Source: Ohtaekwangia koreensis
GTDB lineage: Bacteria > Bacteroidota > Bacteroidia > Cytophagales > Cyclobacteriaceae
Reading direction: 5' to 3'
Assembly: GCF_900167975.1 (NCBI RefSeq)
Contig: NZ_FUZU01000002.1
Coordinates: 7,501-71,500, forward strand
DNA length: 64,000 nt
The notes under the pieces were generated by a model, which saw only the letters and a program-made list of their open reading frames with translations, ran no database searches and was not told where the DNA came from. The translations under genes were made by a program, and so were the position numbers. This document shows, one piece after another, positions 35,203-61,707 of the stretch (within the stretch, counting starts at the first letter, position 1; the number at the start of each line of letters is the position of its first letter).

Positions 35203-35235
35203 CAAGCCCGGGCATATGCCCGGGCTTGTTTTTTT
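35203..35235 (+). terminator. Rho-independent terminator after the zinc metallopeptidase gene
   Basis: Bases 35203-35228 are a perfect 26-bp palindrome (outer CAAGCCCGGGCA, mirrored) followed by seven Ts. It is GC-rich against an AT-rich background and lies 65 bases beyond the stop codon. Confidence 0.92.
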
Positions 35236-49849: not shown

Positions 49850-50266
49850 CTACGATTTTGATGTTGAGAGATAGGGTTTTATATCAAGGCGTATTCGTTT
49901 GTAATCACGCCTGGCATCTTCAATCGAAGATTTTATCCGCATCATTGTATTTGTATCCCAACCTTTTTTCGAGATTTGCACGACCTCATCCATATTTCGT
50001 TCCATCTTGTCGCGATGCTGTAAGAGCTCGCGAGTAGCTTTGTCCATGGGATGTTTTGCTTTAGGGGATGCAATCATTCTCTTTTCATCGAGTGCACGTA
50101 TAGTCTGATTCAATGAATCCCGCAGCTGCATTAGCGCTTTTGAAATCACCTCGCGTTCCATCGCAATTTCAACAGAATCCTTATTCTGGAACATATCCAC
50201 CTGGCTATAGGCAAAACTATGTATACATATAGCCGTGGCAACGAGTATGGTACGTAACGCTTTCAC
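49850..50266 (-). CDS. Small exported helical protein, unknown function
   Basis: 138 residues with a signal peptide (RTILVATAICIHSFAYSQ) followed by a mostly helical, charged region (EIAMEREVISKALMQLRDSL, TRELLQHRDKMERNMDEVVQ). I do not recognise it. The helix-rich, Met/Arg/Glu-rich mature part could form a coiled coil or small bundle. It follows the FAD oxidoreductase gene by about 100 bases on the same strand and may belong to that operon's tail. Confidence 0.65.
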   Translation of the reverse strand: MKALRTILVATAICIHSFAYSQVDMFQNKDSVEIAMEREVISKALMQLRDSLNQTIRALDEKRMIASPKAKHPMDKATRELLQHRDKMERNMDEVVQISKKGWDTNTMMRIKSSIEDARRDYKRIRLDIKPYLSTSKS

Positions 50267-56390: not shown

Positions 56391-56555
56391 CTAGTTTCTT
56401 CTGAAAGATCCGGCAATCAGAGAAACCAGAAAGATCACAATAGCGATAAAGAAAATTATTTTAGCCGCGTAAGCTGCACTGGCAGCAACGCCACCAAATC
56501 CAAAAATAGCTGCAACAATAGCTATTATTAGAAATATTATAGTCCATCGTAACAT
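56391..56555 (-). CDS. DUF1328 (YtjA-like) membrane protein
   Basis: A 54-residue protein read on the minus strand from ATG 56555: [20 protein letters not shown], then [20 protein letters not shown] and [14 protein letters not shown]. Two transmembrane helices with the small-residue stretch GFGGVAA between them are the hallmark of DUF1328/YtjA, small inner-membrane proteins often induced under stress. It is monocistronic, with its own terminator 30 bases downstream. Function unknown. Confidence 0.93.
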
Positions 56556-56764
56556 AAATAATTGTGTTTAGTCTACACATTATAGTACTAGAAATTCATG
56601 CCTGGCCGGATACTATGTATATAAATTCGACATGTGCATGTAGATGATTATCCCCAAAGATTACCCCATTGTTGATACTTAGCTTTAATAATTATTAAGA
56701 TTAGTACATGGCACATCCTTTTCTTATGTCATGACGCATAAGTATACATTTAAACAATACAATT

Positions 56765-56950: not shown

Positions 56951-56976
56951 TCTGATATCATTACTGATGCTTAACA

Positions 56977-57080
56977 GTTTGTAAGGTCATTTTTGGGGTA
57001 TTGCTTCTCTTCATGTACACCACACCATGATCAGTGCAATACTTCCAAAATGAACCTTTGCCTAAAGTGATTTACAAACC
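56977..57080. ncRNA. Structured non-coding element (imperfect inverted repeat)
   Basis: Two arms of about 28 and 45 bases, separated by about 31 bases, can pair in blocks: GTTTGTAA with TTACAAAC at the outside, then GGT-CATTTTTGG with CCAAAATG-A-ACC, and GTATTGC with GCAATAC next to the loop. Small bulges separate the blocks. The element lies between the CsbD gene and the 26-residue peptide gene. It could be a small RNA, a 5' leader for the peptide transcript, or a remnant of a small repeat element. Pairing is seen; transcription and function are inferred. Confidence 0.45.
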
Positions 57081-57139
57081 GTATATCTATATATACGATT
57101 CATATAATTTAGTTGGTCTATAGTTCAGGTAGAAGGTCT

Positions 57140-57163
57140 GGGCCGCTGCGAAGGCAGCGGCCC
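57140..57163 (+). ncRNA. GC-rich leader hairpin upstream of the 26-residue peptide gene
   Basis: A perfect ten-base-pair stem, GGGCCGCTGC (57140-57149) with GCAGCGGCCC (57154-57163), closed by a four-base loop GAAG. It is far more GC-rich than its surroundings and stands 17 bases before the peptide ATG at 57181, with an AAAGG tract between. It is well placed to shield or tune ribosome access. No T-run follows, so it is not a normal terminator. Confidence 0.6.
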
Positions 57164-57180
57164 TTGTAAAGGAAAAGCAT

Positions 57181-57261
57181 ATGAAAGGACGAATCATCAC
57201 CATGCTAATTGCACTATCCATGTTAGTTTTAATTATTGGCATGCAGTTTATACACCTCTAG
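57181..57261 (+). CDS. 26-residue hydrophobic peptide
   Basis: Reads MKGRIITMLIALSMLVLIIG then MQFIHL: a short basic start, one membrane-spanning segment and a polar end, as expected for a small inner-membrane peptide. It has an AAAGGAAAAG tract before the ATG, which is unusual in this window where starts lack Shine-Dalgarno signals. It is preceded by a strong hairpin and followed 27 bases later by a terminator. The shape recalls type I toxin peptides and other small stress membrane proteins, but no homologue can be checked here, so the gene call is tentative. Confidence 0.5.
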   Translation: MKGRIITMLIALSMLVLIIGMQFIHL

Positions 57262-57282
57262 AAACTTTTCACAATCGCTATA

Positions 57283-57320
57283 TATATAAAAAGGTTGCCG
57301 CAACGCGCGTGCAACCTTTT
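57283..57320. terminator. Bidirectional terminator between the peptide gene and gapN
   Basis: AAAAGGTTGC (57289-57298) pairs with GCAACCTTTT (57311-57320) around a GC-rich loop. The plus strand ends in a T-containing tract (CCTTTTACTTT) and the minus strand continues TTTTTATATATA, so it can serve both the peptide transcript and the gapN operon that ends from the other side. Confidence 0.75.
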
Positions 57321-57342: not shown

Positions 57343-58962
57343 TCAGAAAATATAGTCGGTGCTTAAGAAAGCAGATTCGCGATTGCGTATAATATTACTG
57401 ATGATGTGTTTATTTTCATCCGTGCTCTTGGTCGAGACCAGCGTACGAATTGAAAACACACGAAGTGCATCTGCGATGGAAAGTGTTCCTTCCGCAGAAT
57501 CCTTTCTACCATTGAAAGGAAATGTATCTGGCCCACGTTGACTTTGAGCATTTATATTGATTCGCCCCATTTGGTTTACGAAAGCATCGATCAACCTGGC
57601 TATCCGTCTTGAATCTGTACCAAATATACTCACCTGTTGTCCGAAGTTAGAGTTCAGTACATATTCAATAGCTTCTTCATCTTCATCGAAAGGTACAATC
57701 GGAACTACCGGCCCAAACTGTTCTTCATAGTAAAGACGCATTTCCTTATTCACCGGATATACAACTGCCGGATAGAAAAATGAATTTAATGATTCACCAC
57801 CATTTTCATTTACAACATTCGCACCGTGTTTCTTTGCGTCTGCTACAAGCTCTTGTAAATATTCAACTTTTCCAGGCTCTGGCACAGGCGTTAATCCAAC
57901 ACCACTGTCCCATGGCATCCCAGGTTTTAACTTCTTTACTTGTGTATTGAATTTCTCAATGAATGAATCGACAACAGCTTTGTGTACAAAAATAATTTTC
58001 AATGCAGTACAACGCTGACCATTGAAAGAAAGACTTCCTGTTATACATTCGGTAACAGCATTATCAATATCTGCATCCGGCAATACTATAGCAGGATTCT
58101 TTGCATCCAGTCCCAATATAGCTTTAAGACGATGAGGTTTAGGATGAAGCCTTTTCAAATCATTCGCTCCTTTATTTGTTCCTATAAAAGCGAAGACATC
58201 GATCTTTCCAGTTTCCATCAACGCACCAACTGTCTCCCTACCTTTTCCATAAATAATATTAATTACACCCGGAGGGAAGCTATCACGAAAGGCTTCTATC
58301 AATGGGCGAATGAGCAGTACACCAAATTTCGCAGGCTTAAAAACTACCGTGTTACCCATGATCAAAGCCGGAATTAATGTGGTAAACGTTTCATTCAACG
58401 GATAATTATAGGGGCCCATACAAAGCGACACACCCAATGGCACACGTCTGATCTGTGCCATGAAACCTTGCTCCTCAATCAGCTTTGCCGAATTACGATC
58501 AAGATCTTTATATGCCTTTATAGTATCCACTATATAGTCGCATGTACGGTCGAATTCTTTTTCAGAATCTTTGAGACTCTTACCGATTTCCCACATCAAT
58601 AACTTAACTACCGTAGCGCGCTGTGCACGCATAGCCACGAGAAATTTTTCAACGTGCTCGATACGTTCCGTTACACTTAAGGTTGGCCACAATCCTTGTC
58701 CAAGATCGTAAGCCTTCACAGCAGCGTCAAGAGCTTCCAGTGCTTCCTTCGAGGTGAGCAATGGAGTGCTTCCAATTACTTTTTGTTTATAGGTGCCGCC
58801 TTCTTTGGTAAAGACAGGGCTGAGTACTGGATTAAGATTACCAGTCCATGTTTTCATTTCACCATTGACCAGGTACTCACGTTGTTCAATTGCTTCTGTG
58901 ATTCTAAAAGCATCTGGAATGGCGCTTTCCTCTGGGAAAACATTCGCTAAAAGTTGACTCAT
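57343..58962 (-). CDS. gapN: NADP-dependent glyceraldehyde-3-phosphate dehydrogenase (GapN-like)
   Basis: Aldehyde dehydrogenase superfamily enzyme, 539 residues, likely oxidising glyceraldehyde-3-phosphate to 3-phosphoglycerate with NADP. Features: MGPYNYPLNETFTTLIPALI and VVFKPAKFG in the cofactor domain, FIGTNKGANDLKRLHP, and catalytic Cys318 in SFNGQRCTALKI. The motif LELGGK, whose Glu is usually the general base, reads LGLDAK here (residues 284-289), as noted in findings. Closest in pattern to non-phosphorylating GapN-type enzymes; other ALDH substrates remain possible. Five bases after deoC, so probably co-transcribed. Confidence 0.85.
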   Translation of the reverse strand: MSQLLANVFPEESAIPDAFRITEAIEQREYLVNGEMKTWTGNLNPVLSPVFTKEGGTYKQKVIGSTPLLTSKEALEALDAAVKAYDLGQGLWPTLSVTERIEHVEKFLVAMRAQRATVVKLLMWEIGKSLKDSEKEFDRTCDYIVDTIKAYKDLDRNSAKLIEEQGFMAQIRRVPLGVSLCMGPYNYPLNETFTTLIPALIMGNTVVFKPAKFGVLLIRPLIEAFRDSFPPGVINIIYGKGRETVGALMETGKIDVFAFIGTNKGANDLKRLHPKPHRLKAILGLDAKNPAIVLPDADIDNAVTECITGSLSFNGQRCTALKIIFVHKAVVDSFIEKFNTQVKKLKPGMPWDSGVGLTPVPEPGKVEYLQELVADAKKHGANVVNENGGESLNSFFYPAVVYPVNKEMRLYYEEQFGPVVPIVPFDEDEEAIEYVLNSNFGQQVSIFGTDSRRIARLIDAFVNQMGRININAQSQRGPDTFPFNGRKDSAEGTLSIADALRVFSIRTLVSTKSTDENKHIISNIIRNRESAFLSTDYIF

Positions 58963-61649: not shown

Positions 61650-61707
61650 TTAAGAACATCAGGCTTTTGCAGATCGCTGGCGATCTGCAAAAGCCTGATG
61701 TTCTTAA
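61650..61707. repeat. Perfect inverted repeat with 28-bp arms
   Basis: Bases 61650-61677 and 61680-61707 are exact reverse complements separated by only two bases (arm begins TTAAGAACATCAGGC, ends GCAGATCGC). The stem is longer than any other in the window and is not followed by a T-run on either strand. It lies between the convergent ends of the thioredoxin-like gene and rmuC, so termination or RNA stabilisation is one reading; a protein-binding or replication/repair structure is another. Confidence 0.85.

What the first reader, a model, noticed from the sequence alone, without database searches (positions are those of the whole stretch)
56977..57320. Small membrane peptide gene with strong leader structures, possibly a regulated stress or toxin-like unit
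A 26-residue hydrophobic peptide frame (57181-57261) has an AAAGG tract before its ATG, unusual here, a perfect GC-rich ten-base-pair hairpin 17 bases upstream, a larger imperfect inverted repeat further upstream and a terminator just after it. The whole 340 bases look like a compact transcript unit rather than spacer. Small hydrophobic peptides with structured leaders are known as type I toxins and as small stress proteins; neither identity is shown, and no antisense RNA is demonstrated. The neighbours CsbD and DUF1328 favour a stress role.
Basis: partly seen in the sequence, partly recalled or inferred. Interest (0 to 1): 0.56.

Follow-up and report, generated by a model that had tools for sequence, protein, structure and literature searches.

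The report
Conserved tiny membrane-protein gene
A 26-residue membrane peptide, carried on a short message with its own conserved hairpin, is a real but unannotated gene found in a few close relatives beside stress-type genes; it is most likely a small stress-associated membrane protein, and nothing found here shows it to be a toxin.

Summary
At 57181-57261 (+) lies a 26-codon frame (MKGRIITMLIALSMLVLIIGMQFIHL). It is conserved in 4 of 7 held genomes of the genus and changes like a protein gene: G001 vs G004 dS 0.60, dN 0.035. Its GC-rich 10-bp hairpin (57140-57163) is kept in all four, with pairing intact through sequence change. The larger inverted repeat (56973-57058) is a second conserved island just after csbD, separated from the leader by a fast-changing spacer; it folds far better than shuffles in each of three genomes. 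Both occur in the same four genomes and convincingly in no other of 295 family genomes. No Rfam, Pfam or NCBIfam family above cut-off covers them.

Best reading: a clade-restricted single-helix small membrane protein made from a short mRNA with a protective or tuning 5' hairpin, in a stress-type neighbourhood (CsbD, DUF1328), preceded by an independent structured RNA element downstream of csbD. A type I toxin is not excluded, but no antisense promoter is conserved and the upstream element pairs with the peptide mRNA no better than chance. New member of a known kind; modest interest. No expression data.

The parts
57181..57261 (+). 26-aa single-helix membrane peptide gene MKGRIITMLIALSMLVLIIGMQFIHL (stop TAG included)
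   Evidence: 4 of 7 genus genomes; 19 of 26 columns invariant; mostly synonymous change; GRAVY 1.73, best 19-residue window 2.46
57140..57163 (+). leader hairpin, perfect 10-bp GC-rich stem, loop of 4, 17 nt before the ATG
   Evidence: 40 of 40 cells paired in 4 genomes; 3 of 10 pairs vary on one side, 1 on both; longer stems in G001 and G004
57118..57125 (+). CTATAGTT, invariant in all 4 genomes, candidate core promoter element (inferred)
   Evidence: once on + and once on - in the window; it does not fit TTG-N18-22-TAnnTTTG within one mismatch
57168..57172 (+). AAAGG, SD-like, 8 nt before the ATG; kept in G005 and G001, not in G004
57289..57320 (.). terminator-type hairpin shared with the convergent aldehyde dehydrogenase gene; pairing kept in relatives with a different loop
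   Evidence: listed on the minus strand by the scan
56973..57058 (+). separate structured element downstream of csbD: 10-nt flank AACAGTTTGT plus a long imperfect hairpin
   Evidence: single copy in the genome
56765..56950 (+). CsbD-family gene (context)
   Evidence: PF05532 E 2.1e-17
56391..56555 (-). DUF1328-family gene (context)
   Evidence: PF07043 E 4.1e-12
57343..58962 (-). aldehyde dehydrogenase gene, convergent neighbour (context)
   Evidence: PF00171 E 9.4e-99

Best explanation
57117-57320 is a genuine gene for a 26-residue, single-helix inner-membrane protein. It is probably transcribed on its own from a promoter around the invariant CTATAGTT, giving an mRNA of about 190 nt whose 5' end carries the GC-rich hairpin. 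The hairpin stops 17 nt short of the start codon, so it leaves the start region open; the likeliest role is to protect the 5' end and keep the start region unstructured. The peptide would insert with its Lys/Arg N-terminus inside and act by binding or tuning a larger membrane protein under stress, as many small stress-linked membrane proteins are thought to do. The larger inverted repeat upstream is an independent RNA element, most likely the 3' end of the csbD transcript or a small RNA made there. Shown: conservation, coding-type change, conserved pairing, two-island anatomy, synteny. Inferred: promoter, mRNA ends, topology, stress induction, partner.
For: Present in 4 of 7 genus genomes at E 1e-7 to 5e-10, always between csbD and the aldehyde dehydrogenase gene in the three orthologous loci read. 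G001 vs G004: 8 synonymous and 2 nonsynonymous changes, dS 0.60, dN 0.035; G000 vs G001: 15 synonymous over 18.3 sites (saturated) against 7 nonsynonymous over 59.7 sites. Hairpin 100% paired in all 4 against 31.6-75% when slid by 1 to 3 columns. Conserved islands against a divergent spacer. CsbD and DUF1328 next door, both families named among sigma-S-controlled small proteins of Salmonella (PMC5437024 passages). The four carriers form one clade in an aldehyde dehydrogenase tree of 7 sequences, support 0.942.
Against: No transcript, peptide or phenotype data. With 4 sequences the hairpin's covariation does not exceed column shuffles (244 of 500 reach it). No Bacteroidetes-consensus promoter was found on the + strand in any of the 4, so the separate promoter is inferred and a csbD-peptide readthrough transcript is possible. 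The aldehyde dehydrogenase neighbour is metabolic, so the stress link rests on csbD and DUF1328. Narrow distribution: 4 of 295 family genomes.
Confidence: 0.6

Rival explanations
1. Type I toxin: the peptide is a membrane-depolarising toxin held down by an antisense RNA and by leader structure, like TisB or DinQ.
For: Size and hydrophobicity fit TisB (29 aa) and DinQ (27 aa), and an inhibitory 5'-UTR structure is known for tisB (PMC8309996 and PMC3567139, passages). Structured leader here.
Against: The structured element upstream pairs with the peptide mRNA no better than shuffles (76-98% of 300 shuffles reach or beat it in each of 4 genomes). No antisense promoter match is shared by all 4: minus-strand matches occur only in G001 and G004, upstream of the ORF. 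Single copy, fixed synteny, no plasmid or phage match. No Pfam family over its cut-off. The hairpin does not cover the start region.
Confidence: 0.15
2. One dicistronic csbD-peptide message: the big inverted repeat is an intercistronic stabiliser or processing site and the leader hairpin sets the peptide's dose.
For: Same strand, 230 nt apart, found together in 4 of 4 carriers and in 0 of the other 3 genus genomes. No consensus promoter found before the peptide.
Against: The spacer between the two islands differs in length and sequence (24-29% identity), while CTATAGTT is invariant, which suits a separate start.
Confidence: 0.2
3. The stretch is a structured non-coding RNA and the frame is incidental.
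For: Strong folding over the whole stretch.
Against: Codon-type substitution and 77% peptide identity with saturated synonymous sites; antisense frames are not conserved.
Confidence: 0.03
4. Remnant of the signal peptide of a lipoprotein: in G002 and G003 csbD is followed directly by a 138-aa sll1863-family-like stress lipoprotein (in G002 in the same slot before the aldehyde dehydrogenase gene).
For: csbD-adjacent position and a similar hydrophobic N-terminus.
Against: The peptide has its own conserved leader, stop and C-terminal QF-H in two sub-clades. All 7 genus genomes hold a lipoprotein homologue, in the four carriers at a locus away from this slot. No similarity beyond hydrophobicity is evident by eye, not tested statistically.
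Confidence: 0.04

Closest known systems
Small single-helix stress-linked membrane proteins such as YohP (27 aa) of E. coli
   Same: Length, one hydrophobic helix, stress-type context; PMC7549839 (start of abstract in a search listing) describes such proteins as single transmembrane domains associated with stress
   Different: No sequence relation tested or implied; no expression data here; restricted to one clade of Bacteroidota
Type I toxins TisB and DinQ
   Same: Short hydrophobic single-helix peptide, structured mRNA leader
   Different: No antisense RNA, no toxicity shown, no SOS link, fixed chromosomal place, leader hairpin outside the start region
Sigma-S-dependent small-protein genes of enterobacteria (yjbJ/CsbD, ytjA/DUF1328)
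   Same: The neighbours belong to these families
   Different: The peptide itself is not one of them; the regulator in this organism is unknown

Membership tests
Type I toxin-antitoxin system | Small hydrophobic membrane peptide | tested here: met
   26 aa, GRAVY 1.73
Type I toxin-antitoxin system | Cis- or trans-encoded antisense RNA that pairs with the toxin mRNA | tested here: inconclusive
   No excess pairing with the upstream element in 4 of 4 genomes and no antisense promoter match shared by the 4; trans RNAs elsewhere in the genome were not searched
Type I toxin-antitoxin system | Overexpression arrests or kills the cell | not testable with these tools
   needs expression in a laboratory strain
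Type I toxin-antitoxin system | Sequence match to a described type I toxin family | tested here: not met
   Pfam: only DUF5337 at 13.6 bits, cut-off 27; NCBIfam: none
Small (under 50 aa) membrane protein | Frame under protein-coding selection | tested here: met
Small (under 50 aa) membrane protein | One membrane-spanning hydrophobic segment | tested here: met
   best 19-residue Kyte-Doolittle mean 2.46; localisation not tested
Small (under 50 aa) membrane protein | Protein is made | not testable with these tools
   needs Ribo-seq or mass spectrometry
Described structured RNA family (upstream element) | Match to an Rfam model | tested here: not met
   nothing over a gathering score; no match with E up to 1 on the element in the window; in L004 only a chance-level mir-153 hit, E 2.8

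The most novel reading that the evidence does not exclude
A two-part regulatory unit new to this clade: a previously undescribed structured small RNA from the csbD 3' end, inherited together with a hairpin-led 26-aa membrane peptide, the RNA and the peptide acting in one envelope-stress response.
Probability: 0.2. Interest if true: 0.55.

Novelty: new member of a known kind. Interest (0 to 1): 0.33.

Why it matters
Genes this short are routinely missed. Here four genomes give coding-selection and RNA-structure evidence for one, plus a separate structured RNA element after csbD, in a little-studied part of the Bacteroidota where SD motifs are reported as absent and small-protein genes are hard to call. 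It gives a concrete, testable small membrane protein and RNA element beside the widespread but poorly understood CsbD and DUF1328 genes.

Tried and rejected
Mobile or repeated element: the inverted repeat and the leader each have one copy in the genome, apart from one chance-level 16-base match, and there is no plasmid or phage match. Wider homologues: peptide profile in 295 family genomes (only the 4 known carriers below E 1e-3; the next, G178, E 0.0012 inside a 671-aa frame) and in 341 order genomes drawn evenly (only G000 convincing; two partial hits inside 389- and 771-aa frames; the other three carriers are not among its matches and were evidently not in that draw). RNA model R1 in 295 family genomes: the same 4 at E 1e-20 or better, next E 0.001 for a 46-base hit at G209, which I did not read and treat as chance. 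RNAalifold on the MAFFT alignment missed the middle stem (1 two-sided pair); individual folds show it in each genome with different sequences, and my count of about 5 two-sided changes is by helical order, by hand, without a null. A first DNA alignment mixed strands and was discarded; one search was a wasted alignment. Antisense ORF over the peptide: not conserved. sigma-70-type promoter scan: 1 found, 2.0 expected.

Full report
What is there. The window lies in a 7.2-Mb genome (G000), and the stretch was read directly. From left to right it holds DUF1328 (-), csbD (+), a long imperfect inverted repeat (56973-57058), an AT-rich spacer, the invariant octamer CTATAGTT (57118-57125), a perfect GC-rich hairpin (57140-57163), AAAGG (57168-57172), a 26-codon frame (57181-57261), a terminator-type hairpin (57289-57320) and a convergent aldehyde dehydrogenase gene.

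Is it more than chance? Ten Markov-1 random windows gave 0 to 2 perfect hairpins (arm at least 10, loop 3-8) each, none with arms at least 70% G+C. The window has 7, of which 2 are that G+C-rich, this one at 90%. The whole stretch folds at z -4.66 and the inverted repeat alone at z -4.7 in G000, -5.1 in G001 and -6.0 in G004. The opposite strand folds less well: -3.2 in G000 and -3.3 in G001.

Conservation. The peptide is found in 4 of 7 genus genomes held and at no convincing score in the rest of 295 family genomes. Nineteen of 26 columns are invariant. Change is concentrated at third codon positions and is mostly synonymous: G001 vs G004 dS 0.60 and dN 0.035; G000 vs G001 15 synonymous changes over 18.3 sites and 7 nonsynonymous over 59.7. 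The third-position binomial P values (0.003 to 0.02, and 0.56 for the near-identical G000/G005 pair) are rough and not independent. Antisense frames over it are open in G000 and G005, but their sequences are not conserved in G001 and G004.

Leader hairpin. In G000 and G005 it is GGGCCGCTGC/GCAGCGGCCC. In G001 and G004 the stem is longer, with other letters, and all 40 cells over the common 10 pairs are standard pairs. Three pairs vary on one side and one on both; sliding the partner by 1 to 3 columns drops pairing to 31.6-75%. With four sequences, column shuffles reach the same covariation in 244 of 500 trials, so covariation alone is not significant. The leader stretch (hairpin with its flanks) is only moderately better than shuffles in G001 and G004 (z -1.9 and -1.8), against -3.8 in G000.

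Two islands, not one unit. Against G001/G004 the identity over all columns is 19/23% just after csbD, 71/70% over the inverted repeat, 29/24% over the spacer, 62/56% over the CTATAGTT stretch, 61/63% over the hairpin, 71/59% from hairpin to ATG, 70/70% over the frame, 55/58% after it and 54/55% over the terminator. The inverted repeat is thus an element of its own. Its middle stem uses different letters in the two sub-clades but pairs in both. It has one copy in the genome, no Rfam match, and occurs in the same four genomes as the peptide.

Neighbourhood and history. The four carriers group together in an aldehyde dehydrogenase tree of 7 sequences (support 0.942; G001 contributed only 220 positions and no G003 copy was in the loci used). 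In G002 and G003 csbD is followed directly by a 138-aa lipoprotein; the G002 protein matches NCBIfam sll1863 stress response over its cut-off, and the G003 protein is 93% identical to it. In G006 csbD lies in other surroundings. So the stretch was gained once before the four split, or lost from the others. CsbD and DUF1328 family genes are in the sigma-S small-protein table of Salmonella (PMC5437024, passages); that this organism regulates them likewise is inference.

Toxin or not. The peptide resembles type I toxins in size and hydrophobicity (TisB 29 aa, DinQ 27 aa: passages of PMC8309996 and PMC3567139). The defining partner, an antisense RNA, is not indicated. Pairing of the upstream element with the peptide mRNA is matched or beaten by 76-98% of shuffles in all four genomes, and the only minus-strand promoter-like matches are in G001 and G004, upstream of the frame. 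An RNA encoded elsewhere was not searched for. Pfam and NCBIfam give no family over cut-off. Plasmid and phage collections give no match.

How it probably works. The hairpin ends 17 nt before the start codon and leaves it accessible. Bacteroidetes translation is reported to depend on low structure around the start and to lack SD motifs (PMC6847099, abstract and passages). A 5'-end stabiliser or insulator is therefore the likeliest role; this is inference. The peptide would be a single helix with its positive N-terminus inside, acting on a larger membrane protein under stress; also inference.

Literature. Searches for Bacteroidetes small proteins or type I toxins, for CsbD with DUF1328, for B. 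thetaiotaomicron small ORFs, and for small membrane proteins with Cytophagales showed, in the titles and abstract starts listed, nothing that describes this peptide or element. The held library is open-access only and the lists were cut (15 of 31, 8 of 804), so this is no proof of absence from print.

Noticed in passing
61650-61707: Perfect 27-bp inverted repeat with a 4-base loop (58 bases) between two convergent genes, single copy in the genome; the mir-5014 Rfam hit there is far below its gathering score.
   Followed up: partly
49850-50266 (-): A 138-aa frame here is a distant match (22% identity, E 5.4e-5) to the csbD-linked sll1863-family lipoprotein of G002.
   Followed up: no
L079 1053-1469 and L080 1057-1473 (-): In two genus members csbD is followed within 6-8 bases by a 138-aa lipoprotein where the window has the inverted repeat and peptide; L079's protein matches NCBIfam sll1863 stress response.
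   Followed up: partly
upstream of csbD, about 56708-56727: A TGGCAyAwCCTTTTyT-like block is kept upstream of csbD in G000, G001 and G004, perhaps a promoter element; resemblance to a sigma-54 -24 box is recalled and the -12 part does not fit.
   Followed up: no
35203-35228: Another GC-rich perfect hairpin, 11 bp.
   Followed up: no
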